A stretch of 64,000 nt of DNA, taken from positions 7,418,460-7,482,459 of the forward strand of contig NC_087083.1 in assembly GCF_026151205.1 (NCBI RefSeq), given 5' to 3'. How positions within the stretch are numbered: position 1 is the stretch's first letter; every line of letters starts with the position of its first letter. Positions 5,515 to 61,921 of the stretch are shown one piece after another. Source of the stretch: Bolinopsis microptera. Its lineage: Eukaryota; Ctenophora; Tentaculata; Lobata; Bolinopsidae. A program made the position numbers and the translations under genes. A model generated the notes under the pieces. That model had not been told where the DNA came from. It did not search any database and was given only the letters and a program-made list of their open reading frames with translations.

Positions 5515-5852
5515 CTACCCTGTTCATCTGACGACAAGAAGCCCGCTTCAACAAAATCCAAATCAAGCAGCAAGAATTCTTCTGGTAAGCTGGATTCGGT
5601 CGAAGATGAGAGTTCCAGCTCCCCATCGTCTTCAAGTTTTTCAGCCCAATATCAAAAGCCAGGATCAAAACCGGTTAGCCAAAGTCAAGGTAGCTCGAAA
5701 AAGTCTGAATCCGATAAGGAAGTCACTCTTGATTTGTCGTTGTCAAAGAAACCTGAATCGGATTCCAAGGAAGAGGATTCATTTTCAGAACGAGACATAA
5801 AAGAAGCAGAAGTGAAGGTTGCCAGATGTCGATCACCGTCCAGATCTAAGTC
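5515..5852 (+). CDS. Frameshifted link of the giant repeat exon
   Basis: After an extra T (agctcTacc, about 5514) the repeat continues in the next frame. It encodes the end of an A unit and a B unit of the QYQKPGSKPVSQSQGSS subtype, until a missing A (aagtcaatgat where the copy at about 20540 has aagtcaaatgat) restores the original frame near 5852. In the original frame the insertion creates a TGA at 5529-5531. The paralogous stretch at about 20170-20590 encodes nearly the same peptide with an intact frame. Two compensating 1-bp indels within 340 bp suggest either sequencing errors or a genuine damaged copy; I favour errors. Confidence 0.6.
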
Positions 5853-9791: not shown

Positions 9792-11528
9792 ACAAATCCA
9801 AATCAGCAGCAAGATTCTTTGGTAAGCTATCGCGAATTGTCCAGTCCCACTCTATGGTACCAGATCAAAGCGGACAAAACCGTTAACCAAACCAGGAGCT
9901 CGAAAAGTCTGAACCTCTGAGCCAAGTCGCAGAGACGATTAGAAGTCATCTCACAGAAGCAAAACCAACTAAACCAGCACACTTCCTAGTAGAACCACTC
10001 TCAAACCGACTTGCAAGATCACAAGAATCGAACGTATTCAATCCCCGTTATCTGACGACAGAACCATCACAAACACACGCAACATTCGTGTACCACTCGA
10101 TGAAACAGCCACCTGCTTGGCCACAAGTAGAGACAAAACCGTAACCAATCCAACAAAAACTATCTAGGAGAACCAGTCCGCAAACCTGAATGGTCCAGAC
10201 GAAAGTCATTTCAGACCAGTTATAAAAGACGGAAAATAACCAACACAAGATAGTGATGATACCAGCTCTCAAACCGACATGCAGACAGCAGACATCGTCA
10301 TCTTGCCTCACAGTCACGACCAAGAGCGCATCAACCAACCAACCACAGCAAGCATTGTGATATACCAGCCTTAACCGCTGACATTGTCCAGATCAGCGAA
10401 GACACTGACAGTATCACATCACCAATTCCTGACACAGAGCGCTCAACCAAATCAAGCAGCAAGATTCAGTGAGACCAGCTCGAAACTCTGATGCACAGGA
10501 CACAAAGCACTGAGACGTACTTCAGACACAGTTCATTAACAAGAGCGAAATACAAGCAGCACTCCAGTGATAACAGCTCTCAACCGCAATTGTCAAGGAC
10601 ACAAGCACAACGAATCTACTACCTTCGAACAAGAGCCGCTACAACAAACACACAAGATCTTGGTAATGTCGTCGAATGATCCAGCCCATCGCTTCAATTA
10701 CCCATACAAGCAGATCAACCTTCACAAGCTGAAAGTCTTCATAAGAACACCTGATTCGTTGTCAAAGAACTGACGGATTCAGAAGTTATTGAGAAAAGAA
10801 CGATGATCATTCACAGCAGCAACAATCGTCCCCAAACCGCTGAATGGTGCAAGGATCAGCAACATCTGATGACGACTTACGCTCACTTCATGACACAAGC
10901 GCTCAACCAATCCAAACCAGCACAGCATCCTGATATACCACCCCACTCTGACATTGGTCAAGACAGCCAGACACTGACATACTTCACCACAGTTTAGACA
11001 AGACCACACCATCCAACCAGCCAACTTCTCTAGTGATACACTCTCAACGCGACATGAGGATCAGCCAAACGATGAATACTGCGCCAATCATCTGACACTA
11101 GACGAAAAATAAACAGAGCATTCCAGTAGATACATCCTCAACGCTGACATGTCCAAGACACCAAGACTCTGGACATACTCTGAGCCACATCACTGACACA
11201 AGAAGCCGCAAACCACAAACCCCAACATTTCTGAGATCACTCTACCGCGACATTGTCACAGATCACAAGACTCTGATGACATACTTTACAGTCACAGTTC
11301 TGCGACAAGAACGCACACAATCAACCAAGCAGCAACATTTTAGATGATACAGCTCCTCAACGCTGAATTGTCAAGATCAGCCAAACATCTAAGACAGTAC
11401 TCTAACAGTTCACCAGTTCACTGACGACAAGAAGCCGCTCAACAAATCAAACCACACAACATTCTTGTAACCGATCGTGAAGAAAGAATTCCAGCCCCCA
11501 CGCTCAAGGCTCACCCAAACAAACCAGA
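9792..11528 (+). other. Indel-riddled stretch of the 153/267-bp repeat
   Basis: Every part can be recognised as A or B repeat (fragments of gatgataccagctcctc, tctgacgacaagaagcc, gatcagccgaagacatct), but bases are missing every 5-15 nt, so no frame survives. Flanking repeats on both sides are clean, and the change is abrupt at both edges. The damage is mostly deletions, the usual mark of unpolished long-read consensus in a repeat. A true degenerate segment is possible but would be odd inside an otherwise homogeneous array. The short ORFs here on both strands (for example 10048-10338 minus, 10491-10773 plus, 10779-11024 minus) are by-products. Confidence 0.7.
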
Positions 11529-17500: not shown

Positions 17501-20500
17501 CTCCTCCAAACCTGCTGACATTGGTCGCAATGATCAGCCGAAGACATCTGATGACAGTACTTCTAGCAGCTCACCAAGTTCATATGACGACAAGAAGCCT
17601 GCATCAACCAAACCTAAACCCAGCAGCAAGCATTCTTCTAGTGATGATACCAGCTCCTCAAAACCTGCTGACATTGGTCGCAAGGGTCAGCCGAAGACAT
17701 CTGATGACAGTACTTCTAGCAGCTCACCAAGTTCATCTGACAACAAGAAGCCCACTTCAACCAAATCCAAACCAAGCAGCAACCATTCTTGTGGTAAGCC
17801 GGATTCGGTTGAAGATAAGAGTTCCAGGTCCCCATCGTCTTCAAGTGCGTCAGCCCAAGATCAAAAGCCAGAATCAAAACCGGTAAGCCGAAGTCCAGGT
17901 AGCTCGAAAAAGTCTGAATCTGATAAGGAAGTCACCCTTGATTTGTCGTTGTCAAAGAAACCTGAATCGGATTCCAAGGAAGATGATTCATCTTCAGAAC
18001 GAGATATAAAAGAAGCAGAAGTGAAGGTTGACAGATGTCGATCACCGTCCAGATCTAAGTCAGATGATATCAGCTCCTCCAAACCTGCTGGCATTGGTCG
18101 CAATGATCAGCCGAAGACATCTGATGACAGTACTTCTAGCAGCTCACCAAGTTCATATGACGACAAGAAGCCTGCATCAACCAAACCTAAACCCAGCAGC
18201 AAGCATTCTTCTAGTGATGATACCAGCTCCTCAAAACCTGCTGACATTGGTCGCAAGGGTCAGCCGAAGACATCTGATGACAGTACTTCTAGCAGCTCAC
18301 CAAGTTCATCTGACAACAAGAAGCCCACTTCAACCAAATCCAAACCAAGCAGCAACCATTCTTGTGGTAAGCCGGATTCGGTTGAAGATAAGAGTTCCAG
18401 GTCCCCATCGTCTTCAAGTGCGTCAGCCCAAGATCAAAAGCCAGAATCAAAACCGGTAAGCCGAAGTCCAGGTAGCTCGAAAAAGTCTGAATCTGATAAG
18501 GAAGTCACCCTTGATTTGTCGTTGTCAAAGAAACCTGAATCGGATTCCAAGGAAGATGATTCATCTTCAGAACGAGATATAAAAGAAGCAGAAGTGAAGG
18601 TTGACAGATGTCGATCACCGTCCAGATCTAAGTCAGATGATATCAGCTCCTCCAAACCTGCTGACATTGGTCGCAAGGATCAGCCGAAGACATCTGATGA
18701 CAGTACTTCTAGCAGCTCACCAAGTTCATCTGACGACAAGAAGCCGGCATCAACCAAATCTAAACCAAGCAGCAAGCATTCTTCTAATGATGATACCAGC
18801 TCCTCGAAACCTGCTGACATTGGTCACAAGGATCAGCCAAAGACATCTGATGACAGTACTTCTAGCAGCTCACCAAGTTCATCTGATGACAAGAAGCCGG
18901 CATCAACCAAATCTAAACCAAGCAGCAAGCATTCTTCTAGTGATGATACCAGCTCCTCGAAACCTGCTGACATTGGTCACAAGGATCAGCCAAAGACATC
19001 TGATGACAGTACTTCTAGCAGCTCACCAAGTTCATCTGACAACAAGAAGCCCACTTCAACCAAATCCAAACCAAGCAGCAACCATTCTTGTGGTAAGCCG
19101 GATTCGGTTGAAGATAAGAGTTCCAGGTCCCCATCGTCTTCAAGTGCGTCAGCCCAAGATCAAAAGCCAGAATCAAAACCGGTAAGCCGAAGTCCAGGTA
19201 GCTCGAAAAAGTCTGAATCTGATAAGGAAGTCACCCTTGATTTGTCGTTGTCAAAGAAACCTGAATCGGATTCCAAGGAAGATGATTCATCTTCAGAACG
19301 AGATATAAAAGAAGCAGAAGTGAAGGTTGACAGATGTCGATCACCGTCCAGATCTAAGTCAGATGATATCAGCTCCTCCAAACCTGCTGACATTGGTCGC
19401 AAGGATCAGCCGAAGACATCTGATGACAGTACTTCTAGCAGCTCACCAAGTTCATCTGACGACAAGAAGCCGGCATCAACCAAATCCAAACCAAGCAGCA
19501 AGCATTCTTCTAGTGATGATACCAGCTACTCTAAACCTGCTGACATTGGTCACAAGGATCAGCCAAAGACATCTGATGACAGTACTTCTAGCAGCTCACC
19601 AAGTTCATCTGACGACAAGAAGCCTGCATCAACCAAATCCAAACCAAGCAGCAAGCATTCTTCTAGTGATGATACCAGCTCCTCGAAACCAGCTGACATT
19701 GGTCACAAGGATCAGCCAAAGACATCTGATGACAGTACTTCTAGCAGCTCACCAAGTTCATCTGACGACAAGAAGCCGGCATCAACCAAACCTAAACCCA
19801 GCAGCAAGCATTCTTCTAGTGATGATACCAGCTCCTCGAAGCCTGCTGACATTGCTTACAAGGATCAGCCGAAGACATCTGATGACAGTACTTCTAGCAG
19901 CTCACCAAGTTCATCTGACGACAAGAAGCCGGCATCAACCAAATCCAAACCAAGCAGCAAGCATTCTTCTAGTGATGATACCAGCTCCTCTAAACCTGCT
20001 GACATTGGTCACAAGGATCAGCCGAAGACATCTGATGACAGTACTTCTAGCAGCTCACTAAGTTCATCTGACAACAAGAAGCCGGCAAAAACCAAATCTA
20101 AACCAAGCAGCAAGCATTCTTCTAGTGATGATACCAGCTACTCTAAACCTGCTGACATTGGTCGCAAGGATCAGACGAAGACATCTAACGACAGTACTTC
20201 TAACAGTTTACCCTGTTCATCTGACGACAAGAAGCCCGCTTCAACAAAATCCAAATCAAGCAGCAAGAATTCTTCTGGTAAGCTGGATTCGGTCGAAGAT
20301 GAGAGTTCCAGCTCCCCATCGTCTTCAAGTTTGTCAGCCCAATATCAAAAGCCAGGATCAAAACCGGTTAGCCAAAGTCAAGGTAGCTCGAAAAAGTCTG
20401 AATCCGATAAGGAAGTCACTCTTGATTTGTCGTTGTCAAAGAAACCTGAATCGGATTCCAAGGAAGAGGATTCATTTTCAGAACGAGATATAAAAGAAGC

Positions 20501-23500
20501 AGAAGTGAAGGTTGCCAGATGTCGATCACCGTCCAGATCTAAGTCAAATGATATCAGTTCCTCCAAACCTGCTGATATTGGTTGCAAGGATCAGCCGAAG
20601 ACATCTGATGACAGTACTTCTAGCAGCTCACCCGTTTCATCTGACGACAAGAAGCCCGCTTCAACCTTATCCAAACCAAGCAGCAAGCATTCATCCGGTG
20701 ATGATACCAGCTCCTCTAAACCTGCTGACATTGGTCGCAAGGATCAGCCGAAAACATCTGATGACAGTATTTCTAGCAGCTCAACAAGTTCATCTGACGA
20801 CAAGAAGCCTGCATCAACCAAACCTAAACCCAGCAGCAAGCATTTTTCTAATGATGATACCAGCTCCTCGAAACCTGCTGACATTTGTCGCAAGGATCAG
20901 CCGAAGACATCTGATGACAGTACTTCTAGCAGCTCACCAAGTTCATCTGACGACAAGAAGCCCGCTTCAACCAAATACAAATCAAGCAGCAAGAATTCTT
21001 CTAGTGATGATACCAGCTCCTCGAAGCCTGCTGACATTGGTCACAAGAATCAGCCAAAGACATCTGATGACAGTACTTCTAGCAGCTCACCAAGTTCAGC
21101 TGACGACAAGAAGCCGGCAACAACCAAATCTAAACCAAGCAGCAACCATTCTTTTAGTGATGATACCAGCTCCTCGAAGCCTGCTGACATTGGTCACAAG
21201 GATCAGCCGAAGACATCTGATGACAGTACTTCTAGCAGCTCACCAAGTTCATCTGACGACAAGAAGCCTGCAACAACCAAATCTAAACCAAGCAGCAACC
21301 ATTCTTTTAGTGATGATACCAGCTCCTCTAAACCTGCTGACATTGGTCGCAAGGATCAGCCGAAGACATCTAACGACAGTACTTCTAACAGTTCACCCAG
21401 TTCATCTGACGACAAGAAGCCCGCGTCAATTAAATCAAAACCAAGCAGCAACCATTCTTGTGGTAAGCCGGATTCGGTTGAAGATAAGAGTTCCAGCTCC
21501 CCATCGTCTTCAAGTGCGTCAGCCCAAGATCAAAAGCCAGGATCAAAACCGGTAAGCCGAAGTCCAGGTAGCTCGAAAAAGTCTGAATCTGATAAGGAAG
21601 TCACCCTTGATTTGTCGTTGTCAAAGAAACCTGAATCGGATTCCAAGGAAGATGATTCATCTTCAGAACGAGATATAAAAGAAGCAGAAGTGAAGGTTGA
21701 CAGATGTCGATCACCGTCCAGATCTAAGTCAGATGATATCAGCTCCTCCAAACCTGCTGACATTGGTCGCAATGATCAGCCGAAGACATCTGACGACAGT
21801 ACTTCTAGCAGCTCACCAAGTTCATCTGACGACAAGAAGCCTGCATCAACCAAACCTAAACCCAGCAGCAAGCATTCTTCTAGTGATGATACCAGCTCCT
21901 CGAAGCCTGCTGACATTGGTCACAAGGATCAGCCAAAGACATCTGATGACAGTACTTCTAGCAGCTCACCAATTTCATCTGACGACAAGAAGCCGGTAAC
22001 AACCAAATCTAAACCAAGCAGCAAGCATTATTCTAGTGATGATACCAGCTCCTCTAAACCTGCTGACATTGGTCGCAAGGATCAGCCGAAGACATCTAAC
22101 GACAGTACTTCTAACAGTTCACCCAGTTCATCTGACAACAAGAAGCCCGCTTCAACCAAATCCAAATCAAGCAGCAAGAATTCATCTGGTAAGCTGGATT
22201 CGGTCGAAGATGAGAGTTCCAGCTCCCCATCGTCTTCAAGTGCGTTAGCCCAAGATCAAAAGCCAGGATCAAAACCGGTAAGCCGAAGTCCAGGTAGCTC
22301 GAAAAAGTCTGAATCCGATAAGGAAGTCACTTTTGATTTGTCGTTGTCAAAGAAACCTGAATCGGATTCCAAGGAAGAGGATTCATTTTCAGAACGAGAC
22401 ATAAAAGAAGCAGAAGTGAAGGTTGCCAGATCTCGATCACCGTCCAGATCTAAGTCAAATGATATCAGCTCCTCCAAACCTGCTGATATTGGTCGCAAGG
22501 ATCAACCGAAGACATCTGATGACAGTACTTCTAGCAGCTCACCCGTTTCATCTGACGACAAGAAGCCCGCTTCAACCAAATCCAAACCAAGCAGCAAGCA
22601 TTCATCCGGTGATGATACCAGCTCCTCTAAACCTGCTGACATTGGTCGCAAGGATCAGCCGAAGACATCTGACAACAGTACTTCTATTAGCTCATCCAGT
22701 TTATCTGACGACAAGAAGCCCACTTCAACCAAATCCAAACCAAGCAGCAACCATTCTTGTGGTAAGCCGGATTCGGTTGAAGATAAGAGTTCCAGCTCCT
22801 CATCGTCTTCAAGTGCGTCAGCCCAAGATCAAAAGCCAGGATCAAAACCGGTAAGCCGAAGTCCAGGTAGCTCGAAAAAGTCTGAATCCGATAAGGAAGT
22901 CACTTTTGATTTGTCGTTGTCAAAGAAACCTGAATCGGATTCCAAGGAAGAGGATTCATTTTCAGAACGAGACATAAAAGAAGCAGAAGTGAAGGTTGCC
23001 AGATCTCGATCACCGTCCAGATCTAAGTCAAATGATATCAGCTCCTCCAAACCTGCTGATATTGGTCGCAAGGATCAACCGAAGACATCTGATGACAGTA
23101 CTTCTAGCAGCTCACCCGTTTCATCTGACGACAAGAAGCCCGCTTCAACCAAATCCAAACCAAGCAGCAAGCATTCATCCGGTGATGATACCAGCTCCTC
23201 TAAACCTGCTGACATTGGTCGCAAGGATCAGCCGAAGACATCTGACAACAGTACTTCTATTAGCTCATCCAGTTTATCTGACGACAAGAAGCCCACTTCA
23301 ACCAAACCCAGCAGCAACCATTCTTGTGGTAAGCCGGATTCGTTTGAAGATAAGAGTTCCAGCTCCCCATCGTCTTCAAGTGCGTCAGCCCAAGATCAAA
23401 AGCCAGGATCAAAACCGGTAAGCCGAAGTCCAGCTAGCTCGAAAAAGTCTGAATCTGATAAGGAAGTCACCTTTGATTTGTCGTTGTCAAAGAAACCTGA

Positions 23501-26500
23501 ATCGGATTCCAAGGAAGATGATTCATCTTCAAAACGAGATATAAAAGAAGCAGAAGTGAAGGTTGACAGATGTCGATCACCGTCCAGATCTAAGTCAGAT
23601 GATATCAGCTCCTTCAAACCTGCTGACATTGGTCGGAATGATCAGCCGAAGACATCTGACAACAGTAATTCTATTAGCTCACCAAGTTCATCTGACGACA
23701 AGAAGCCTGCATTAACCAAACCTGAACCCAGCAGCAAGCATTCTTCTAGTGATGATACCAGCTCCTCGAAACCTGCTGACATTGGTCGCAAGGATCAGCC
23801 GAAGACATCTGATGACAGTACTTCTAGCAGCTCACCAAGTTCATCTGACGAAAAGAAGCCAGCATCAACCAAATCCAAACCAAGCAGCAAGCATTCTTCT
23901 AGTGATGATACCAGCTCCTCGAAACCTGCTGACATTGGTCACAAGGATCAGCCAAAGACATCTGATGACAGTACTTCTAGCAGCTCACCCAGTTCATCTG
24001 ACGACAAGAAGCCCGCTTCAACCAAATCCAAATCAAGCAGCAAGAATTCTTCTGGTAAGCTGGATTCGGTCGAAAATAAGAGTTCCAGCTCCCCATCGTG
24101 TTCAAGTGCGTTAGCCCAAGATCAAAAGCCAGGATCAAAACCGGTAAGCCGAAGTCCAGGTAGCTCGAAAAAGTCTGAATCCGATAAGGAAGTCACTCTT
24201 GATTTGTCGTTGTCAAAGAAACCTGAATCGGATTCCAAGGAAGATGAATCATCCTCAGAACGAGATATAAAAGAAGAGGAAGTGAAAGTTGACAGATCTC
24301 GATCACCCTCCAGATCTAAGTCAGATGATAACAGCTCCTCCAAACCTGCTGACATTGGTCGCAAGGATCAGTTGAAGACATCTGACGACAGTACTTCTAG
24401 CAGCTCATCCATTTCATCTGACGACAAGAAGCTTGCACCAACCAAATCCAAACCAAGCAGCAACCATTCTTGTGGTAAGCCGGATTCGTTTGAAGATAAG
24501 AGTTCCAGCTCCCCATCGTCTTCAAGTGCGTCAGCCCAAGATCAAAAGCCAGGATCAAAACCGGTAAGCCGAAGTCCAGCTAGCTCGAAAAAGTCTGAAT
24601 CTGATAAGGAAGTCACCTTTGATTTGTCGTTGTCAAAGAAACCTGAATCGGATTCCAAGGAAGATGATTCATCTTCAAAACGAGATATAAAAGAAGCAGA
24701 AGTGAAGGTTGACAGATGTCGATCACCGTCCAGATCTAAGTCAGATGATATCAGCTCCTTCAAACCTGCTGACATTGGTCGGAATGATCAGCCGAAGACA
24801 TCTGACAACAGTAATTCTATTAGCTCACCAAGTTCATCTGACGACAAGAAGCCTGCATTAACCAAACCTGAACCCAGCAGCAAGCATTCTTCTAGTGATG
24901 ATACCAGCTCCTCGAAACCTGCTGACATTGGTCGCAAGGATCAGCCGAAGACATCTGATGACAGTACTTCTAGCAGCTCACCAAGTTCATCTGACGACAA
25001 GAAGCCAGCATCAACCAAATCCAAACCAAGCAGCAAGCATTCATCCGGTGATGATACCAGCTCCTTTAAACCTGCTGACATTGGTCGCAAGGATCAGCCG
25101 AAGACATCTAACGACAGTACTTCTAACAGTTCACCCTGTTCATCTGACGAGAAGAAGCTGGCATCAACCAAATCCAAACCAAGCAGCAAGCATTCTTCTA
25201 GTGATGATACCAGCTCCGCAAAACCTGCTGACATTGGTCACAAGGATCAGCCGAAGACATCTGATGACAGTACTTGTAGCAGCTCACCAAGTTCATCTGA
25301 CGACAAGAAGCCGGCATCAACCAAATCCAAACCAAGCAGCAAGCATTCTTCTAGTGATGATACCAGCTCCGCAAAACCTGCTGACATTGGTCGCAAGGAT
25401 CAGCCGAAGACATCTGATGACAGTACTTGTAGCAGCTCACCAAGTTCATCTGACGACAAGAAGCCGGCATCAACCAAATCCAAACCAAGCAGCAAGCATT
25501 ATTCTAGTGATGATACCAGCTCCGCAAAACCTGCTGACATAGGTCGCAAGGATCAGCCGAAGACATCTGATGACAGTACTTCTAGCAGCTCACCAAGTTC
25601 ATCTGACGACAAGAAGCCGGCATCAACCAAATCCAAACCAAGCAGCAAGCATTCTTCTAGTGATGATACCAGCTCCTCTAAACCTGCTGACATTGCTTAC
25701 AAGGATCAGCCGAAGACATCTGATGACAGTACTTCTAGCAGCTCACCAAGTTCAGCTGACGACAAGAAGCCGGCATCAACCAAATCCAAACCAAGCAGCA
25801 AGCATTCTTCTGGTAAGCCGGATTCGGAATATCTGGATCCGGATACTTCCTTCATTGACATATCACTGGAAAGCGACAGCTCCATTTTTATTGCTGGATC
25901 ACGGTCTACGCAATCCCTTGTCAAAATAGATTTTGACAAATATGATACCGAAGATCAACTCGAAATCAATATTGCTCAGATCAACGTTTTAATATCTGAT
26001 TACGGTCCGATACTGACAAACCTCACCACCGACATTAATGATGGTGTGATCCTTTCAATCCTGGTGAATATTCACATACCCCAGTTTCTTAACGCAGTCT
26101 CTGATCTTCCTCCAGAAGAGAAAATATCAGCAAGTCTAATAGCTTCTGAGAAATTCCTTCCAATATCAGGTCTGGGATTGACTTTTGAGGACTTCACTTC
26201 AGACCACGATCTCACTGTTCTGATTCCATTCTTTGTACAATTTATCGATGACAGTTTCATGGATCATGTTGTTGATGTTCCCCTTGATGTACTGGTGACA
26301 TTATTGAGGTTCACTCCTTATCCTGATGGAGCTGACAACTTGAGCAGTACTTGTTCTCCCTTATTAGACCAAAGAATTCCAAACCGTTTTAATAACGGAA
26401 CTCCAGATGTAAATGAAATTAAAGGAAATCATCCCGAAGACAAGGATGGAAAGATGTGGCGTCCTTTATTGATAGAAGAGGACATTCCACCAGAACTAGA

Positions 26501-26740
26501 AAATAAACCGTGCATATTTTTAGAGATTTACGAGACTGTCATTCCAAATCGAGCACAGAACTCCACCGCGGAGGAAGCAAGTACAGATGTGTCCGATTTC
26601 AGTGAGAGTTTTAGCGCTCCCATGTTGACGGAGCAAGAAGTTCTGGAGGTGGAGCAGTGTGTTGTTATAGAAGTTCCTCGACATTTGGTCGGTGACTTGA
26701 GTGTGAAGAATGTTGCTACTGAAGAAGAGCCTGAAACTTG
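11529..26740 (+). CDS. Giant repeat protein, exon 1, segment 3 with CH-like C-terminal part
   Basis: This segment is an uninterrupted frame of about 5,070 codons, the cleanest part of the exon. Sixteen B units alternate with runs of one to fourteen A units up to about 25815, where the repeat ends in SGKPDSEYLDPD. Unique sequence follows: an acidic lead, a divergent CH-like stretch (25959-26262), then an acidic tail ending EEEPET. The exon most likely ends at 26740 before a strong donor (TTG|GTAAGTTT). Without splicing the frame stops at TAA 26742-26744. No start codon needs to be assumed: the apparent N-terminus at 11598 is only an internal TTG, and the frame is open back into the indel-rich stretch. 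The domain combination suggests a cytoskeletal linker with a very long disordered spacer; this is inference. Confidence 0.8.
25959..26262 (+). other. Divergent calponin-homology (CH)-like stretch
   Basis: About 101 residues, from LEINIAQINVLISDY to FFVQFIDDSF, follow the CH2 pattern of actinin/filamin-type proteins. There is a hydrophobic helix, then TNLTTDINDGVILSILVN (family: nF..dw.dG..l.aLv), then LIASEKFLPISGLGL (family: A...aek.LgI...l), then FEDF and a final hydrophobic helix. The usual Trp before the DG is replaced (DINDG). In the CH family such domains bind F-actin, microtubules or signalling partners; a single type-2-like CH alone often binds actin poorly. The assignment is by eye and needs a profile search. 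Confidence 0.5.
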
Positions 26741-26921
26741 GTAAGTTTCATTTTTGCTGAAATTTTGCTTGTTTAATTTGCTGCATAAAGAATCATTTTA
26801 TAAAAATGTATTTTAAATTTGCTTTGATTGTGTTGCTACGTATCGCTGATTAATGTGAACATAATTCTCGAATTTTGATACTGATTTTACTCTGAAATCA
26901 AGCTTATCTGCATTTTTTCAG

Positions 26922-27080: not shown

Positions 27081-27197
27081 GTGATAAAATTAAAAGGTTT
27101 ATAGAAATAGGTTCATAATAAAGATCATATTAAGATTACTGCCAATTATTTGACCCGGTTAATCCAGAAATATCTTAACTCTTCCCATTTTGTGTAG

Positions 27198-30100
27198 AAC
27201 GGAAAATGCAGAGAGAGATTTCCGGGCGGCAGAGCGGAACAAGCTCACTCCCACAGTAACTACACTGAAAAGAACCAGGTACTACACAACCAAACACAAT
27301 GGAATCTGTGTCACCACCGAAGTCAAGGAGTACACCAAGAAAACAACGTATGTGTACCCGGAAGGAACAAAACCCCCAGAGCTGGATAACATCTCACTGA
27401 AAAGCAATTGCGTCCAAGAAAAGAGTAAGGTTTCTAAGAAGTTTACTCCGATTGGTAACGATGAATTGGAGGCTCTGATCGACTCCAACGATCCCTTTGA
27501 TCTGTCGAGACTGGACACGGATTCTCACACTCATATCTACAATCTAGATGATGATAAACGCAGCGATGCAAGCTCTTTTACCTCAAAAGATTTCAACATC
27601 ACCTCCTCGGGAGACAAATCAGAGAAATCGGAGAAGATAGAAATGGAAACAAGTTTGAACCACCCAGCTGTTTCAGATAAACTACCTTCAGAAAACATTA
27701 AGTTTACCAAGTCTGATAGAGAGTCACCAGGTCCAGAGACGTGCAAGTTAAACCGACTGTCATATAACCAGGCGCTTAAGGATGAAGTAGTGCAATCTGA
27801 CAAAAGTTCCACATCTTCTTCTTCATCCTCTTCTTCATCCTCTACAGATGCTAAATCAGCTACTTTTAATGACACATCAGAAGGTAAATCTGATGGTAGT
27901 TACAAGAGTTCCATTGTGGGAAAGAAAGGATCATTCTTCCCGAATATCTTCAATAACATTTGTAAAGGACCTGATACAAAGAGTGTTGATATGCAGGACG
28001 AACCAGAATCTCTGCCAACTGATAATACCAGCTGTGTAGGAGTGACAGTCGACAGCTCTTCAAAGCCAAGTATTCGAGTAAGCAAAGACTCTATAACTAT
28101 CCCCTCAAAAAAGAGCAGCAAATCCAGTTTGGAAAAGAAGAGCAAACCCTCAAAGATGCCAATGTGTCCTCCATTTGGCAAGAAATATCCTCCAACTTCA
28201 CCAGTTTCAGATCGAGCACCTTCACTGTCACCCCCCTCGAAACCACCGAGATCACCTCAAGTTATTCACATACCTCTGACAGATCCTGAAAGTGAGAAAG
28301 AAGATCCATTATATGATGTACCTCTGGAGACTGTACCTGTGGAGACTGTACATGTGGAGTCTGTAGCTGATGTAGAGTCTGCTCCGGTTAGTGATTCCGT
28401 TCCAGTGTGTCAGGTTGAGCCAACTTACGCAGAAATTCCGTCAATTGTTGATGATGTAGTGGAACAAGTGGAAGCAACTCCTGAAATTGAAATTGACCAT
28501 GATCTCAAATTATCTTCACCATTGACAGAAAAGTCCGAATCAGGCAGAGAAGCAGAAACTCATTCAAAGAAAACAACATCCAAGGAGTCACCAAAATCAT
28601 CATTGAAACTCGAAACTTCGATTAGAATACCATCATTAATAGACACCGATTCATCCCTTAAAAGCCCTCGAAAATCCTCCTCAAAAGATAAAGAAAAGAA
28701 AACATCTCATGTTCTGAAAACGCCACTTGAAATACACCCCAAGGCAGTCCGAGTCCACGGTGATAAAAAGAAACGACCCTTCAGTCTCTGCGGGTTGGGG
28801 AAACCGGATATCTCTGAAGAAGAACCAAAACCTAAAAGTGGACGACCAACATCATGCTTTGGAGGACAACCGTCACTTGAAATGTCTTCCTCAGATTCTG
28901 ATGACAAGGACGATACTTTGAAACATGGTCAGTCCATAAGCTCGATCGAGTCATTTGTAATATCCTCCTCACTGGTGAGACCCATTAAAAACCCTTCACT
29001 AAAACCAAGACATCTTAAAGTCGGACTAAACCCCGACGGATCCTTAATGATAGATGATAGCGGCTGTCTTCTTGACCCTGACGGCCATCCCCTAGTTTAC
29101 CTCGGTCCAGATGGTTCCGAGAAACCCAACTTCCATCCCGCTTTAGGCCCAGTTGTTGGACCGGATGGGGCGGTTTACAGTCCAAACGGCAAGCCTATGC
29201 TCAATCCTGATGGAAAGCCTATAATCCTGAGTCTGAAGCCTTCACAACCGGCACCACTTGTCCCAGTCCCTCCAGATGACAATGGGAATCTGCTAGGACC
29301 TGACGGGGAACTGCTAATTGGACCTGACGGTGAACCCATCAAGTGCCTGGTGGATGTGTGCATACCTTATATTGACCCAGCTGGTATTCTCCATGGGCCG
29401 GATAAAGAGCCCATAAGGGACCCTGAAAAAGGGGAACCCATCCGAATAAAACTGAACCCTGATGGAAGCATTCCCCTGGACGAGAATGGGAATATTCTAG
29501 ATGAGGACGGTAAAATTGTGAGGCCCTCCAACCCCATAAAACCAGGGAAAGATCCATTAAGTGTTGTGGTTATAGCTCCTGATGGAGGTGTGATCGGACC
29601 AGATGGGAAGCCTGTAAGGAATAATGAAGGAGAACCTGTCAAGACGTTGTGTCCATGTGGGGATACACCTCTCCAAGTAAATGATATAGGTGAGCTACTG
29701 GACGCGGACGGACTCCCTATAACAGTTGAGGAGATACCTGTTACTCCTCTAGTGACCTATATTTTACCAGAAATAGAACCAGATGGGAGTGTGCTGGACC
29801 CCGAGTCGGGTCTCCCAGTTATCACCCCGGAGGGGGTCCCCGTTCTTGTGGGACTCAGACCAGATCCTAACTTTGTACCAGTAGATATGTGCCCCAGTGG
29901 TCCAAATGAGGAGGGTATGTTGGTGGATGATGAAGGGATCCTTTTATTGGGACCAGACGGTAATCCTGTAAAGTGTCCTTCAGTTAGGATTGGTTGTCCA
30001 TACATCTCAGATGATGGAACTATGCATGGTCCTGATAAGTTACCACTCCTTAATCCAGAGACTGGGAAACCCATCAAGATAAAACTCAATCCTGATGGGA

Positions 30101-31277
30101 GTCTCCCGGTGAACGATGATAAAAATATGCTAGATGAGAATGGAGATGTGATTCCTGGATTGAAACTAGGTGAAACACCTTTGGGAGACGTTATCATAGC
30201 TCCTGATGGATTAGTGCTCGGACCGGACGGGAAACCATTGCTTGATAGCGAAGGAGAACCCAGAACAGTACACCACCCAGACACTGGCATACCCCTCACT
30301 GTTAACGAGGACGGAGACTTGCTCGACACAAAAGAAAACCCAATTCCACTTCCTGGATCCGAAAAACCCGTTAAACCGATTTTACACAACTTTTCCTGTC
30401 CTCACGTGAGACCTGATGGTTCCGTGTACGATTTCGGAAAACCGATAATCACGTACGATATCCCAGAGGAGAAGCTTAAACCCATACTCCCTCAGAAAGC
30501 ACTCCCACTGGGAACTGAGGTTGGCCAAGCTCTGCAGCGAGCAGTGGATCTGAGTTCTGAGGAGTCTTGCTGCCACTCTTCCGCCCCTGTCCCACCTCCG
30601 CGAGTAAAGAAGAGTAGATCATTGTTAGGTTGGAACCCGTGTACAAGGGGTGAACCAGAAGCGCAGGTAGACGATGCTGGAGTGGTGTCCTCTGCTGTCT
30701 GCTCTGAGACCCGCACCTCCAGCAACACCTCCAGTAACACCACCACTGTGCCGACCAGTAAACCTGCTCTACTAGGGGGACTGCTCAATAAGATCCGGGG
30801 CAGGAAGAAGGAGAGGACCACACCCCAACTGAAGAGATCAACCTCCGTCCCTACATCCCTCTACTCCAGCACTGAGTCCCTGATAGTGGTCACCTACAGG
30901 ATCCGTAAGAAGCGAGGTCAAAGTGCTCCTCCTCAAGCGAAGAAGAGACGCCCCACTTTGGTGACTATTGACTGTAACTATGGTGACGCCCCTACCTACT
31001 TGTCACCAATGTATGTGGCAGACATTGTAGGAACCTTCAACTCAGAAGAGACAACCCCAGCACCCGAAGTAGTCGGTTACCATGACAACATCCTGGATAA
31101 GATCCGTCAGTTTAAAGACACCCCACCTACCACCGGTGCTAAAGAGAACCAGTCCCACGTCTTCACGTCCTGTCACTGCAGCTCCGCAACTACTCGCAGC
31201 TCCGTGGGTATCGGCACGGGGTGTGATGTAATCCAGCACGAACAGTTTCAGTACATTCCTAACCTGGTGGATCTGGA
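27198..31277 (+). CDS. Exon 3: Ser-rich region, Tyr/Pro motifs and GPDG repeats
   Basis: About 1,360 codons are open between acceptor tgtgtag (27195-27197) and donor GA|GTGAGT (31278). The N-terminal third is disordered and Ser/Lys/Glu-rich with a Ser run. A Pro-rich segment (PPSKPPRSP) fits SH3-type ligands, and YDVP and YAEIP tyrosines fit SH2-type ligands (YDVP matches the Crk/Nck preference). The middle is a 460-residue block of short GPDGKPV/LNPDGSL repeats (29013-30400). The C-terminus is basic (KKRGQSAPPQAKKRRP) and then Thr/Ser/Cys-rich, ending IPNLVDLE. I do not recognise the family. The phase-2 end joins in frame with the exon at 32062. Whether it belongs to the same gene as the repeat exon depends on the 26740-27198 junction; same strand, tight spacing and matching phases favour it. 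Confidence 0.7.
29013..30400 (+). repeat. GPDG/NPDG short-repeat domain with a 636-bp super-repeat
   Basis: Around 30 copies of a loose 9-14-residue motif of the type hGPDGKPh occur, with h hydrophobic, and variants NPDGSL, DENGNIL and DEDGKIV. A larger unit of about 212 residues is present twice: the stretch from NGNLLGPDGELLIGPDGEP through HGPDKEPI and IRIKLNPDGS recurs 636 bp downstream as EEGMLVDDEGILLLGPDGNP through HGPDKLPL and IKIKLNPDGS. The regular turn-strand pattern suggests stacked beta-hairpins. Asp/Asn/Gly spacing could bind calcium, but no complete EF-hand loop is visible. Confidence 0.8.
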
Positions 31278-31705
31278 GTGAGTACCCCTGAAATTCCACC
31301 TAAAATTCCTTAAATCATTACTTTAATCGATACAACACTCAAGTAGTTGTTGAAAGCCGGCCTCACCTGCATTTTAATAGTGCTGCAATCTGCTCGCTAA
31401 CTCTTAAATGTCCCTCCCCTCTACGGCTTCTACCTGCCAATAATAAGCCTCGCCATTATATTAACTACTCATTCTTTCTATCTGAAACCCAAATAAGTGT
31501 CATGTGTCATGTGCTGTCGGGTTCCTAATTGTTGCAGAGTTACTGTGCTGCGTTTCTATTCTCTCTCAGAATCTTATAATACAAATGTTAACGAGCTGCA
31601 GCTGTTTTACAAAAGATTGAAATTCTTATTTTTACAATGGCACAAATGTGGTTTACCATGGTAACCATGGTAACCATGTTTGTTAGCTGGAAAATAATTA
31701 ATGTT

Positions 31706-50623: not shown

Positions 50624-52422
<1,799 letters not shown>

Positions 52423-55460: not shown

Positions 55461-58400
55461 ATGGTTTTTATAGCAGTACTTTTATTCCATTATTTGTCAC
55501 GTACTGAGGCGTCAGAGGAACAAGAACTGTTCAAGCGTCTTGGAATACCTGGTCAGTAAGTCTTTAAATTAATTAATTTTTAATTAGTAGTGATTTGAAT
55601 TAAATTGATTAAATTTTGGTTTGGTTAAACTGTGTTTTTATTAATTTACTTGCGATTTGAATTATTATATTGCATATATTTTTATCTTGTAAGGCATTAG
55701 TACCAATTTTACATTTAGGGTTATCTGTTTTTTGTTACTCTGACAGTGCTCTAATGTTTTTGTTTTTAACCTAGTGGCCCTTCGCTTTCTTCTATGGCTT
55801 CGATTTCTAAGCTCAAAGAGAATTTTAAAATTGTAAAGGAAGAAAACGTCACAATTTGTCCTACATATTTATTCTGTATTAAAACTCACTTCTTACAGGA
55901 CCGCCAAGAGAAGAAGGAAAGCGACGAGACCCACCCTCCTTCATGATGGAACTGTTCCGACAGCACAACAGAGTCTTAGGCCACGGTATGGCTACCAGCA
56001 TTTCCAGCTTTGATGCTTTAGATACCAGTAAGTACAAGATCTGTCACATTTGCTATCTTCTCATATTTGGTTACTGGTTACTAGGTTACATGCCGCCGGT
56101 TACTAGGTTACATGCAGCCGGTTACTAGATTACATGCCGCTGGTTACTAGGTTACATGCCGCCGGTTACTAGGTTACATGCCGCCGGTTACCAGGTTACA
56201 TGCAGCCGGTTACTAGGTTACATGCCGCCGGTTACTAGGTTACATGCAGCCGGTTACTAGATTACATGCAGCCGGTTACTAGGTTACACAAGACGCGGGT
56301 TCGGTTCTAATCCGATTATTCTTCACCGGCGGGGAAGCACTTTATCTCTCTAAGTATGCTTGTAGGATGGCACGGAGTATCATCCACTGTGGCAGGTAAA
56401 CCCCTACACAGCTGATCTGCACTAAATAGGGGTGTCTGGAACTCAGAAACAGCTGATAGGCATCGCGCCAGGCCGCACAAAATCAGAAAAATGTTAAGTG
56501 TTTGAGCCCAAGCCCTTTGTCCTGGCTAACCCTTCGTTAGATCAGATCACTCAACAGTGGGCACTTTGTCAGAGAACTGGACAGTTAACAATCTTTATTA
56601 CCTCAGATCAGAGCCACGAGGTCAGTAAAGACAGGTGGAGTTTTGAGTTCTCCGTGGCTGATCTAGACCCTCGGGAGCGAGTGACAGAGGCCCACGTAAG
56701 GGTATACAAAGCCAAGGGCAGCAAGCAAAAAGAGGTAATGTTTAACCCTTTGTCGGCTATTTAGAGGTTGGGGATTTTTCTTCCGGAAGGATCTGATCAC
56801 GAAAGAAGTTGTCATGGGCCCAGGGGGTGGCAGTTTAGTCTGACTGTACTGATGAGCGGATTTAACCTAAAGTATATTTATACTATAAATAAACTTTAGG
56901 TTAAATCTACTCATCAGTATTTTGTGGTTTGGATAAAATTATCACACTTAGCTAAGCTATCATTTACACTAGCCTTTATAACGTTATGGGTAATAACATA
57001 ACGACCTTTCAGACCCCTTACCGTGTGAACGTGTTCCATGTTTTGGACAGAGAGCGGGCGCTGGACTCTTCAGTCAACGACTATTATCTCATCAGTCCTT
57101 TCAACTCATCCCTCGTCGTCAGATTACTAGACACTCAGGTACGAGTCCTATACCCGTTAAGATTACTAGACACTCAGGTACGAGTCCTATATCCGTTAAG
57201 ATTACTAGACACTCAGGTACGAGTCCTATACCCGTTAAGATTACTAGACACTCGGGTACGAGTCCTATACACGTTAAGATTACTAGACATTCAGGTACGA
57301 GTCCTATAACCGTTAAGATTACTAGACATTCAGGTACGAGTCCTATAACCGTTAAGATTACTAGACACTCGGGTACGAGTCCTATACCCGTTAAGATTAC
57401 TAGACACTCAGGTACGAGTCCTATACCCGTTAAGATTACTAGACACTCAGGTACGAGTCCTATACCCGTTAAGATTACTAAACACTCAGGTACGAGTCCT
57501 ATAACCGTTAAGATTATTAGACACTCAGGTACGAGTCCTATAACCGTTAAGATTACTAGACATTCAGGTACGAGTCCTATAACCGTTAAGATTACTAGAC
57601 ATTCAGGTACGAGTCCTATAACCGTTAAGATTACTAGACACTCAGGTACGAGTCCTATACCCGTTAAGATTACTAAACACTCAGGTACGAGTCCTATACC
57701 CGTTAAGATTACTAGACACTCAGGTACGAGTCCTATACTGAGTATACCTGTTAAGATTACTAGACACTCAGGTACGAGTCCTATACCCGTTAAGATTACT
57801 AGACACTCAGGTACGAGTCCTATACACGTTAAGATTACTAGACATTCAGGTACGAGTCTTATACCCGTTAAGATTATTAGACATTCAGGTACGAGTCCTA
57901 TACCCGTTAAGATTACTAGACACTCAGGTACGAGTCCTATACCCGTTAAGATTACTAGACACTCAGGTACGAGTCCTATACCCGTTAAGATTACTAGACA
58001 CTCAGGTGCGAGTCCTATACTGAGTATACCTGTTAAGATTACTAGACACTCAGGTACGAGTCCTATACCCGTTAAGATTACTAGACACTCAGGTACGAGT
58101 CCTATACACGTTAAGATTACTAGACATTCAGGTACGAGTCCTATAACCGTTAAGATTACTAGACATTCAGGTACGAGTCCTAAAACCGTTAAGATTACTA
58201 GACACTCAGGTACGAGTCCTATACCCGTTAAGATTACTAAACACTCAGGTACGAGTCTTATAACCGGTAAGATTACTAGACATTCAGGTACGAGTCCTAT
58301 ACCCGTTAAGATTACTAGACACTCAGGTACGAGTCCTATACTGAGTATACCTGTGAAGATTACTAGACACTCAGGTACGAGTCCTATACCCGTTAAGATT

Positions 58401-61400
58401 GCTAGACACTCAGGTACGAGTCCTATACACGTTAAGATTACTAGACATTCAGGTACGAGTCTTATACCCGTTAAGATTACTAGACATTCAGGTACGAGTC
58501 CTATACCCGTTAAGATTACTAGACACTCAGGTACGAGTCCTATACCCGTTAAGATTACTAGACACTCAGGTACGAGTCCTATACCCGTTAAGATTACTAG
58601 ACACTCAGGTACGAGTCCTATACTGAGTATACCTGTTAAGATTACTAGACACTCAGGTACGAGTCCTATACACGTTAAGATTACTAGACATTCAGGTACG
58701 AGTCTTATACCCGTTAAGATTACTAGACATTCAGGTACGAGTCCTATACCCGTTAAGATTACTAGACACTCAGGTACGAGTCCTATACCCGTTAAGAGCA
58801 CCTCATCGTTACGAGCACCAGTGCATTTAGATTAAAAATTGACATTCTTTCTAGAAGAAAATTCTGTAGAACAGGTATTTAGTTCCTGTCATAAAACTAT
58901 ATTTATTTTTGTGGGATATTTAGGCCTTGACCAACACTGATCGGTTTTCTATAATGTTCTGTGTTCTAAAAAGGTGGATTGTTTAGACCCTTAATAAGCA
59001 AAGTTCAGAAGTGATTAGTCCCCAAGTGCCCAATTAATGGTGCAGATCCTGCAACATACTCACCGTTACCGTTACTGTTAAACCTGTAGTCACCCTGGTA
59101 AACACTATTCCGGGCTAGGTGCTATTAATAGAAGTAACCAGTAACAGGCGCATAGTGGTACGAGGGAGAAGTTTCCTGGGACCCACCGGTTGACAGGACA
59201 TCAACAACCATTCAATCAAAATATCGAGCACTCTTTATACCCTAGCAAATTAGACTGGTACCGGGTCGTGCAGTCTAGAAAAGTACAGGAATCCTGTGGT
59301 TCTCATTAAATTAACAGCTAATTAATCAGTGATTTTATCTGTGAGTTAATAACGAAACTCCCCCAGATATTAGAGTCCCGGCAGTCTCATTGGGTGTCAT
59401 TCAACGTTGCAGAGGCGGTTAAAGCCCTACAAGAACTGGGAGTGCATAACGCCAGGTTCGAGATTGCCTGCACTCCTATCAACCCGATAGACATGGCCCA
59501 GTCCTCCCGGGGCATCAGATTCACCAAATCTAGAGGAAAACTGGTTAGTACTGACTCGTAATGGAAATGTTGTCATACGTTGAGTATGTTAATTCAATAT
59601 CGCTTAAAGATATTGGAATATTACAACTGTGCTTGGAATTTGGAAGTCTGAAATCAGGAATATTACAATTGTGCTTGGAATTTGGAAGTCTGAAATCAGG
59701 AATATTAAAGATGAGATCGGAATTTCAAATATTCATAAGACGTGCAGTTTTTAACAAATTGTAAGGGAACTAGGAGAGGCGTACATATGAGGTCACGGCT
59801 AATTCCGCGAGGTCACAAGATAGATTTTACGAGGATTACATTGAAATTTGAATTTTGGCTCGGCTCAATAGACTCGAATGCTATTGGCGTGGGTGACGTA
59901 CGTTGTTTTGACAACCTTTTGCGATTTTTATTGGTCTCATTTCCATTTTACAAGCAGGTGTATCAAACACTGTCTGTTTTCTGAGCTAAAATGTCACCTT
60001 GTTGTCCGGAAGTTACGTACTGCCCGGACAACATGTAGACAACAAGCCTGTAAACAATCTTTCTGTCTCCAGAAATCATATTACCAAAACACGTGCAACA
60101 CGTCTGGTTATTGAAATGTAGAGTGGACGATTTTGACCACGTGATTTGACGATATCTTTGTGTTTTCAGCCCTCTCTTGTTGTGTTCACTGACGATGGGC
60201 GCAATGTAGTGGAGGAAGACAGGGACACTAGGAACTCTAGTCCATCTATAGACAGTATTGACTATGATCCCTCGCAGTCGCATTGTCAGAGAAAAGAGCT
60301 CTTCATCGACTTCAGGTAACATTATTGACAGTAAACCTCTTCTAAGAAAGTTAGTTGTGAATCCTTAGGAACCTCAAGCTCGCAGCTATCTACCTGATGT
60401 TACAGCCATTTAACCACTAGACCAACATATACTGTATTCTTAACGTGTTTGTATTTCAGTCGTCTAGGCTGGAATTGGATTATAGGACCACCAGGTTTCG
60501 ACGCGTTCATGTGTTCTGGAGAGTGTACCCTCACGTTTAACAGCAGACTGCAGATCACCAACCATGCGTATCTTCAGGTCGGTTCCTAGAATCAATATCA
60601 TTTCTATGATATGTTTGTTAAAATGCCAATGGGGCCAAATCAAATTATTGCTTGATTTGGCTCCAAATATTGCTTGGATAAAATAATCGCTCTGCCATTA
60701 ACACGTCATGTTTATCATAAATTAATCATCGCAACGCTCCGTGATTTAATGTAACTAGCAGGAACCCGTCGAACCCTATAGTGGTGTTAAGACTCAAGAG
60801 ACTAAAATAATTATTATCTATTTAATTCGTGTTTTTGACACCACTTGGGGGTCCAAATTTTGGGCACTCAAATTTTTATTCTTTGGCCAATTTCTCTATT
60901 TTTTCATGCTGTTTTGAAAGCCATTAAAGCATTTGAACCAGTCAAAAAAAGTTTAAGTTGTGTATCATTTACAGTTTTTGCGGAAAGTCGTGTTAAAGTT
61001 GATGCCGTGATGTCAGTAAAATGGTTCAAATATATATACATATCGTCTCGCTTTATATATAGTAAGATTGAATTGTAATTGTAAACTCTTACAGGCTTTC
61101 CTGGAGTCAAAGCACAAAAACATCCCCAAACCGTGCTGTTCCCCCATGAAACTGAGCCCCATGACACTGATATACTACACTGAGAACGGAATTAAGATGA
61201 AGGAGTACGACGAAATGAGGGTATGTTCCGTCTTGCTTTTATTAAGGTCATACAAGGTTCTACAATGGTCTACAAGGTCCTACAAGGTCCTAAAAAGTCC
61301 TACAAGGTCCTACAAGGTTCTACAAGGTCCTACAATTGGTCATACAATTGGTCCTACAATTAGTCCTACAAGGTCCTACAAGGTCCTACAAGGTCCTACA

Positions 61401-61921
61401 AGATCCTACAAGGTCCTACAAGATCTTACAAGGTCCTAAAAGGTCATACAAGGTCCTAAAAGGTCTTACAAGATCCTACAAGGTCATACAAAGATACAAG
61501 GTTATACCTATTTAAGGTCCTACAAGCCAATCCCAATAAAGAGGGAGGGTCCTGTATCTCGATGTCAAATTTGTGTAGGATTATCGTTTTATGAAGTACT
61601 CTAATCATTTGGAGTACTAGGGCTGGGGATGTGCTACTGCCGTCGGGATTTGCTTCCCCTTTTTTTCGTAGACATTTATTTTTATCTATGGTAGTGCAAT
61701 TTCTAAACAGTAAAGTCATAGCCAAAATTTACGAATACTATACTGTCCAACATTGCTCTGGCGGCATTGCCATTTATGGCTAGCCTTTAGCAACTATCTA
61801 CTGAAGAGCCTATAAAATACAAAATCCACAAATCAGGCAGTGACTCACAAAGTCGGAGAAATAAAAGAGCCACTCGACTGACATTCATAATTTTCAGGTG
61901 GAACAATGTGGATGTGAATGA
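55461..61921 (+). CDS. BMP/TGF-beta family ligand precursor, nine exons
   Basis: Exons: 55461-55551, 55899-56027, 56499-56734, 57013-57138, 59367-59543, 60170-60315, 60460-60577, 61095-61220, 61898-61921. All phases agree and the product is 390 residues, close to BMP2/4 length. Residues 1-17 are a signal peptide (MVFIAVLLFHYLSRTEA). The prodomain shows DPPSFMMELFRQHN, WSFEFSVADL and RLLDTQ followed by WVSFNVAEAV, all BMP-type landmarks. RDTR (271-274) is a minimal furin site. The mature 116 residues carry seven cysteines (292, 320, 324, 355, 356, 387, 389) in the cystine-knot pattern. A secreted dimeric morphogen for type I/II Ser/Thr-kinase receptors is expected from the family. Oddities: GWN-WI is one residue shorter than BMP GWNDWI, as in GDF8 and TGF-beta; the end is CGCE; exon 3 has a poor pyrimidine tract; exon 1 uses a GTCAGT donor. 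Subfamily is unresolved. Confidence 0.92.
56076..56287 (+). repeat. 22-bp minisatellite in intron 2 of the BMP-like gene
   Basis: About ten copies of ggttactaggttacatgccg plus cc, with gcagcc variants. It starts 48 nt after the exon 2 donor. Confidence 0.93.
56847..56919. repeat. 27-bp inverted repeat in intron 3
   Basis: Arms 56847-56873 and 56893-56919 (tactgatgag...aacctaaagt) match in 25 of 27 positions around a 19-nt AT-rich loop. It lies between exon 3 and exon 4, so the transcript would contain the hairpin. Confidence 0.85.
57121..58797 (+). repeat. 39-bp minisatellite copied from the exon 4 end and its splice donor
   Basis: There are 42 units of agattactagacactcag|gtacgagtcctatacccgtta, four of them lengthened by 9 bp (tgagtatac insertion near 57735, 58020, 58340 and 58621). 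The first unit is the last 18 coding bases of exon 4 (RLLDTQ) plus its donor CAG|GTACGA. Later units are therefore duplicated donors inside intron 4. The long units are spaced about 282-322 bp apart, showing higher-order duplication. The 560-codon minus-strand frame across it is an artefact of 39 and 48 being divisible by three. Confidence 0.95.
60221..60232 (+). other. Propeptide cleavage site RDTR
   Basis: R-X-X-R, the minimal furin-type motif, lies in exon 6 just after VVFTDDGRNVVEED and 18 residues before the first mature cysteine. It is the only suitable dibasic-type site there. Cleavage would release a 116-residue mature ligand beginning NSS, which is itself an N-glycosylation sequon. 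Confidence 0.75.
61245..61525 (+). repeat. 10-bp array (tacaaggtcc) in intron 8 of the BMP-like gene
   Basis: About 25 imperfect copies begin 25 nt after the exon 8 donor, with variants acaaggttc, acaagatcc and acaattggtc. Confidence 0.9.

What the first reader, a model, noticed from the sequence alone, without database searches (positions are those of the whole stretch)
57121..58797. A minisatellite born from an exon end: 42 tandem 5' splice sites
The repeat unit is the last 18 coding bases of exon 4 plus its donor and 21 intron bases. Every unit thus offers an exon-tail-like ACTCAG|GTACGAG. The frame stays open from 57138 through the donors at 57178, 57217, 57256 and 57295 until TAA at 57307-57309, so choosing donors 2 to 5 would insert 13, 26, 39 or 52 residues (VRVLYPLRLLDTQ-type) after LLDTQ in the ligand prodomain. 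Donor 4 even changes Q to R, giving the BMP-typical LLDTR. Copy number could tune isoforms or splicing efficiency, and it may be a length-polymorphic regulator of a morphogen.
Basis: partly seen in the sequence, partly recalled or inferred. Interest (0 to 1): 0.85.

Follow-up and report, generated by a model that had tools for sequence, protein, structure and literature searches.

The report
Repeat array copying an exon's end
In an animal gene for a BMP-type growth signal, the end of one exon and its splice signal have been copied 42 times in a row into the following intron; this kind of boundary repeat is already known from amphioxus and is most likely harmless, but it makes a natural test of how cells choose among many equal splice sites.

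Summary
Window 57121-58797 is a 39-nt minisatellite of 42 units (37 of 39 nt, four of 48, the last plus AGA). Its first unit is the last 18 coding bases of exon 4 of a nine-exon BMP-like gene (55461-61921) plus 21 intron bases. GT is kept in 42 of 42 units, and 39 of 42 read CAG|GTACGAG. They pair with this genome's U1 about as well as the gene's real donors.

The functional reading is not supported. Donors 2-5 would keep the frame (13-52 residues), but this frame has 13 stops in 12 of 42 units, while two other frames are stop-free throughout. Donor positions are not significantly less variable than the rest (P 0.15).

The structure meets the description of amphioxus "mirages": tandem duplications of exon-intron boundaries, reported not to disturb splicing. 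In human paralogues, boundary repeats are reported to change transcripts, so passivity is not guaranteed. The genome, probably a lobate ctenophore's, is rich in minisatellites.

Best reading: a passive mirage, born by a slip between two AGA triplets, with the first donor normally used. Its value is as a natural experiment: 42 near-equal 5' splice sites, 39 nt apart, where a normal ligand needs the outermost. No RNA data were available.

The parts
55461..61921 (+). Nine-exon BMP-like ligand gene; exons 55461-55551, 55899-56027, 56607-56734, 57013-57138, 59367-59543, 60170-60315, 60460-60577, 61095-61220, 61898-61921; 354 aa
   Evidence: Exons joined by GT/AG and frame; Pfam TGF_beta 4.8e-30 and TGFb_propeptide 5e-14; best solved relatives a BMP2/BMP6 chimera and BMP2
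57013..57138 (+). Exon 4 (propeptide, ends RLLDTQ); its last 18 nt are the first part of repeat unit 1
57121..58797 (+). Mirage-type minisatellite, 42 units, consensus AGATTACTAGACACTCAG|GTACGAGTCCTATACCCGTTA
57139..57140 (+). Presumed authentic donor GT of intron 4 (CAG|GTACGAG), most intron-distal of the 42
   Evidence: no RNA evidence
57178..57296 (+). Donors 2 to 5 (GT at 57178, 57217, 57256, 57295), the only extra copies that keep the ligand frame open
57307..57309 (+). TAA, first stop in the ligand frame if the array is read through
57706..58638 (+). Stretch holding the four 48-nt units (16, 23, 31, 38), 7 or 8 units apart: higher-order block duplication
   Evidence: unit table; similarity peaks at lags of 7, 14 and 21 units
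57121..57123 (+). AGA at the left breakpoint (in exon 4)
58795..58797 (+). AGA at the right breakpoint; unit text ends here
59367..59543 (+). Exon 5, acceptor partner for the donors
56076..56288 (+). 22-nt minisatellite in intron 2, 48 nt after the donor
61244..61491 (+). 10-nt minisatellite in intron 8, 23 nt after the donor

Best explanation
The array is a 'mirage': a minisatellite that began when a 39-nt stretch across the exon 4 / intron 4 boundary was tandemly duplicated between two AGA triplets and then grew, partly by duplication of blocks of about seven units. Because the leftmost copy still supplies the coding tail and donor, the growth was tolerated and the rest is intron. Shown here: anatomy, donor strength, single locus, block pattern, breakpoint match. 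Inferred: the slip itself; that pre-mRNA is normally spliced at the first donor (57138) to 59367, because a normal ligand needs that site (or at most donors 2-5); and that the other 41 sites are outcompeted or their products removed. Recalled, not tested here: exon definition (the authentic exon is 126 nt; using donor 42 would make about 1.76 kb) and early co-transcriptional commitment would favour the first donor, and products of donors 6-42 would meet nonsense-mediated decay.
For: Boundary overlap and exon origin. AGA on both sides of the array with little further match outward. Units nearly identical, with similarity peaks at lags 7, 14 and 21. One locus only; the only matches to the exon 4-5 protein are these two exons. 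Minisatellites of period 8 or more cover 10.7% of the adjoining 200 kb, so overlaps with exon ends are expected somewhere in the genome. No significant donor constraint (2 of 9 donor sites against 11 of 30 others vary; permutation P 0.15 on cells, 0.35 on sites). Stops in the ligand frame in 12 of 42 units. [quoted passage not shown]
Against: No RNA evidence at all for donor choice here. All 42 GTs are intact, which a neutral reading permits but does not predict.
Confidence: 0.72

Rival explanations
1. Isoform generator: donors 2 to 5 are used and add 13 to 52 residues (VRVLYPLRLLDTQ type) to the propeptide.
For: Frame stays open through donors 2-5; inserts 13, 26, 39, 52 residues. Donors are as strong as the gene's own. 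Boundary repeats can change transcripts in human paralogues (PMC2812944, passages).
Against: A 39-nt period is in frame one time in three and an open 13-codon unit is about a coin toss (inference). Two other frames are stop-free across the whole array while the ligand frame closes at unit 5. Only 4 of the 41 extra donors give a full-length product. No significant donor constraint.
Confidence: 0.09
2. Copy-number rheostat or U1 sponge: many U1-bound decoy donors lower (or speed) productive splicing, or hold U1 on the intron to block premature polyadenylation, so that array length sets ligand output.
For: Units have donors with U1 duplex energy -6.4 to -7.1 kcal/mol against -6.1 to -8.0 for the real donors, while 2 of 233 other GT sites in the introns reach -7.1; the two U1 copies read here have the canonical 5' end ATACTTACCTG. 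Period 39 exceeds the U1 footprint of 23+12 nt quoted in PMC6002489 (passage). The stretch 57100-57300 folds less stably than all 200 shuffles (z +3.0), so the sites look accessible.
Against: No expression or length data; no significant constraint on donor bases; published lancelet mirages show no splicing effect.
Confidence: 0.13
3. Intron-proximal donors win, so most transcripts are truncated in the propeptide and the gene is largely silenced by its own array.
For: The preference for the intron-proximal of comparable sites (PMC6002489 passage).
Against: All nine exons join in one intact frame with the conserved cysteines, which suggests a working gene.
Confidence: 0.03
4. Assembly artefact or collapsed/expanded repeat.
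For: Long near-identical arrays are hard to assemble (recalled).
Against: Distinguishable unit variants in ordered blocks (18 unit types); one locus in a contig of 15.2 Mb. Exact copy number remains uncertain.
Confidence: 0.03

Closest known systems
Amphioxus 'mirages' (Adh3, troponin C, globins BflGb6 and BflGb9, PGBD5)
   Same: Minisatellite-like tandem duplication spanning an exon-intron boundary; units carry AG/GT signals; unit length 39 lies within the 10-72 bp quoted for Adh3; both 5' and 3' boundaries can be affected (PMC3087553)
   Different: Different animal, probably a ctenophore; 42 copies where globin BflGb6 has 6 and 3 in two haplotypes; regular in-frame unit wider than a U1 footprint; splicing outcome unknown here
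Variable internal tandem repeats at exon-intron boundaries of human paralogues (PMC2812944, passages)
   Same: Minisatellite-type repeats (average 30-bp units), some at exon-intron boundaries
   Different: About four copies on average; many alter exons or form new introns; whether units repeat the 5' splice site was not in the passages I saw
Intron gain by tandem duplication of an AGGT-containing stretch (Rogers-type model)
   Same: Tandem duplication that copies a splice signal
   Different: Here an existing intron's donor was copied; nothing suggests a new intron; papers seen only in the search listing and in the discussion in PMC3087553
Competing 5' splice sites (e.g. DOK7 intron 4, ER-alpha exon 1)
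   Same: Competing donors close together, with U1 thought able to bind more than one
   Different: Two sites there, 42 near-identical ones here (passages)
Ctenophore BMP-like ligands (MlBmp5-8, MlBmp3)
   Same: BMP-class ligand; an RXXR motif (RDTR) precedes the mature domain
   Different: Orthology not tested; no Mnemiopsis sequence was available

Membership tests
Mirage (exon-intron boundary minisatellite) | Tandem repeat whose unit spans an exon-intron boundary | tested here: met
   18 exon + 21 intron nt per unit, 42 units
Mirage (exon-intron boundary minisatellite) | Repeat units carry splice signals | tested here: met
   GT in 42 of 42, CAG|GTACGA in 39 of 42
Mirage (exon-intron boundary minisatellite) | Does not disturb regular splicing | not testable with these tools
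   No RNA reads; the exon structure reads as intact
Mirage (exon-intron boundary minisatellite) | Length instability between haplotypes or in soma | not testable with these tools
   One copy of the locus found in the assembly; block pattern suggests past instability
Mirage (exon-intron boundary minisatellite) | Reported host group: cephalochordates | tested here: inconclusive
BMP-class TGF-beta ligand | TGF-beta domain closest to BMPs, with a propeptide | tested here: met
Recursive (ratchet) splice sites | Acceptor with pyrimidine tract joined directly to a donor | tested here: inconclusive
   Pyrimidine fraction before CAG is 0.47 in 37 of the 38 units printed against 0.53-0.71 in the eight real acceptors: weak, not excluded

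The most novel reading that the evidence does not exclude
A run of 42 near-equal 5' splice sites, spaced just beyond one U1 footprint, loads a train of U1 particles on the intron; array length then sets how often the outermost, productive donor is chosen (and how well the intron is protected from early polyadenylation), making a length-variable minisatellite a dosage control of a BMP-type morphogen.
Probability: 0.1. Interest if true: 0.8.

Novelty: new member of a known kind. Interest (0 to 1): 0.42.

Why it matters
It is a large boundary minisatellite, and it probably extends mirages from lancelets to a ctenophore, which would suggest that they follow from a minisatellite-rich genome rather than from one lineage. 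It also gives a clean natural test of an open question in splicing: PMC6002489 (passage) says that how the intron-proximal of two comparable 5' splice sites is favoured is not known. Here 42 nearly identical sites compete, and a normal ligand needs the outermost one or, at most, the first five.

Tried and rejected
Genome-wide abundance of donor arrays: AGGTAAGT three times in 5-35 nt steps gave 401 + 560 hits, reversed pattern 11 + 0. This first looked like a striking excess, but the permuted word AAGGTGAT gave 25 + 313 and its reverse 162 + 158. Counted by eye as arrays in the printed rows (both lists are cut), contigs C1 and C2 show 9 AGGTAAGT arrays (that list ends at C2:21.87 Mb) against 6 AAGGTGAT arrays. 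I reject it as evidence of enrichment; also the reverse complement of AGGTAAGT is pyrimidine-rich and can be an acceptor tract.

Flanks of 7 of those 9 arrays: one starts at the GT of a plausible donor (L043), one runs into a plausible acceptor (L048), one lies in a likely intron before a plausible exon (L045), four show no exon to the eye. Pfam gave no match over a cut-off for the six exon translations tried, three from these flanks and three from near the window (0 of 6; Sushi at E 0.09, DUF4639 at 0.043). They are leads only.

5'-end bias: in four of eight introns of this gene an array starts -18, +23, +48 or +71 nt from the donor (combined P 0.0009 with intron 4; 0.033 without it). This is post hoc. 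In the adjoining 200 kb, three of the listed adjacencies looked believable by eye and all three lie at acceptors, one of them also starting 33 nt after a plausible donor. Not pressed.

Units in the 264-kb stretch (arrays starting in the first 26,800 bases, the coding repeat, left out): AGGTRAG in 0 of 65 arrays, reversed control 0; AGGTRNG 2 against 0; CAGGT 6 against 0; MAGGTR 4 against 3. No clear excess of strong donors.

Recursive splicing: weak pyrimidine tract. Stable RNA structure: 57100-57300 folds less well than all 200 shuffles. Organism naming beyond 'probably lobate ctenophore': not possible for lack of a reference sequence.
Full report
WHAT IS THERE. The array at 57121-58797 is real. 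Cut at each AGATT start it has 42 units: 37 of 39 nt, four of 48 nt, and a last one followed by AGA. The consensus is AGATTACTAGACACTCAG|GTACGAGTCCTATACCCGTTA. The first 18 bases are the coding end of exon 4 (RLLDTQ) and the next 21 are intron. GT is present in 42 of 42 units; CAG|GTACGA in 39 of 42, CGG|GTACGA in two and CAG|GTGCGA in one.

THE GENE. Joining nine exons by GT/AG and frame gives 354 residues from a signal-like start to VEQCGCE and a stop. Pfam finds a TGF-beta propeptide (5e-14) and a TGF-beta domain (4.8e-30); the best solved relatives are a BMP2/BMP6 chimera and BMP2. An RXXR motif (RDTR) precedes the mature part. The protein of exons 4 and 5 matches only these two exons in the assembly at E up to 1, and an exact 28-base piece of the unit lies at 21 places, all in this array.

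DONOR QUALITY. Duplex energies with the U1 5' end are -7.1 kcal/mol for the commonest unit and -6.4 and -6.8 for the two variants, against -6.1 to -8.0 for the eight presumed real donors, of which unit 1 is one. Only 2 of 233 other GT sites in the introns reach -7.1. The genome search lists ten U1 matches, and the two copies in L050 begin ATACTTACCTG, the sequence used. So the copies are credible 5' splice sites, not merely GT words.

FRAME. Donors 2 to 5 keep the reading frame and add 13, 26, 39 and 52 residues; donor 4 ends LLDTR; donor 6 meets a stop at codon 215. That much of the finding is right. But this frame carries 13 stops in 12 of 42 units, whereas one other plus frame and one minus frame have none across the whole array. 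An open frame here is therefore no sign of coding use. That LLDTR is BMP-typical is recalled, not tested.

CONSTRAINT. Variant cells in donor positions -3 to +6 are 3 of 378, elsewhere 45 of 1260 (the 9-nt inserts were taken out first); 2 of 9 donor sites vary against 11 of 30 others. Permutation gives P 0.15 on cells and 0.35 on sites. There is a lean towards conserved donors but no significant signal. Cells are not independent, since blocks of about seven units appear to have been duplicated (peaks at lags 7, 14, 21).

BIRTH. The repeat match ends sharply on both sides and the bases shared at the two ends are AGA. A single ancestral copy with AGA at each end would yield this array by a slip between the triplets. 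This is inference from the breakpoints.

HOW SURPRISING. In 26,801-64,000 of the window the 14 arrays that I listed by hand cover 5,966 of 37,200 bases (the CT repeat and low-copy rows were left out). In the next 200 kb, arrays of period 8 or more cover 10.7%. With random placement the 14 arrays would start in the last 30 nt of an exon of this gene, and end in its intron, 0.06 times. For one gene that is unusual; over the many genes of a genome such cases are to be expected (inference).

KNOWN KIND. [quoted passage not shown] PMC3902484 (one passage) says the same for PGBD5 and cites Adh and troponin C. The original Adh paper was not among the listed results. The present array meets both structural features; the behavioural ones could not be tested. 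Boundary repeats are not a lancelet matter alone: PMC2812944 (passages) reports variable tandem repeats at exon-intron boundaries of human paralogues, which may form novel introns and mostly have alternative transcripts. That speaks against taking passivity for granted.

ORGANISM. The assembly has 264,652,675 bases in 232 contigs, C1 26.2 Mb, C2 23.0 Mb, C12 15.2 Mb. PMC11797021 lists Bolinopsis microptera at 265 Mb and gives Mnemiopsis leidyi 248 Mb and 13 chromosomes (passages); PMC10232365 gives 13 chromosome-scale scaffolds for Bolinopsis (passages). PF00019 gives 14 matches, two of them from the present gene, and two ligands 1.4 kb apart on C5, as PMC3169577 describes for MlTgf1a and MlTgf1b (passages). 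Two nuclear receptor families gave no match (the tool warns that its controls did not ring either). A lobate ctenophore is therefore likely, not proved. The scaffold count (346 for Bolinopsis) differs from 232.

NOT IN PRINT, AS FAR AS SEARCHED. Searches listed 3 of 3, 15 of 31 and 10 of 124 papers. Of these I opened four: two on lancelet mirages, one on a nematode where Mirage is a transposon name, and the human one above. The word minisatellite does not occur in the main text of three papers with ctenophore genomes that I searched. I found no report of such an array in a ctenophore, within those searches.

MECHANISM. I hold that the array is passive and that donor 1 is normally used. The puzzle is that of comparable donors the one nearest the acceptor is said to be favoured (PMC6002489, passage), which here would destroy the ligand. 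The period of 39 nt exceeds the 35-nt U1 footprint quoted there, so many U1 particles could sit side by side. The stretch 57100-57300 is less structured than all 200 shuffles. These facts make the locus a good test bed, and leave a small chance that copy number matters.

Noticed in passing
window 1-26744: Very long reading frame of 153-bp repeats (one stretch of 5087 aa, 11481-26744), rich in serine, lysine and aspartate, with 420- and 459-bp periods as well.
   Followed up: no
window 27163-31281: Open frame of 1372 aa with repeated GPDG/NPDG-type segments; function unknown.
   Followed up: no
window 56850-56925: An inverted repeat in intron 3, MITE-like by eye.
   Followed up: no
window 56076-56288, 59615-59725, 61244-61491: Three further introns of the same gene hold minisatellites that begin 48, 71 and 23 nt after the donor.
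   Followed up: partly
window 51676-52420: 745-bp CT dinucleotide run.
   Followed up: no
L012 about 5069-5385: 70-nt array whose units include an acceptor-like TTATCTCAG and a few bases of a plausible exon: possible 3' mirage; Pfam gave no support.
   Followed up: partly
L011 about 4728-5545: TATTCTCAC x 90 forms most of a likely intron and its pyrimidine tract up to a plausible acceptor, between two exon-like frames; Pfam gave no support.
   Followed up: partly
L043 about 100-622, + strand: 19-nt array that begins exactly at the GT of a plausible donor; Pfam gave only DUF4639 at E 0.043.
   Followed up: partly
L048: Short array of CTTACCTCCTAAA type running into a plausible acceptor before a zinc-finger-like frame; Pfam gave no support.
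   Followed up: partly
L050: Two U1 genes in opposite orientation about 0.7 kb apart, both beginning ATACTTACCTG.
   Followed up: no
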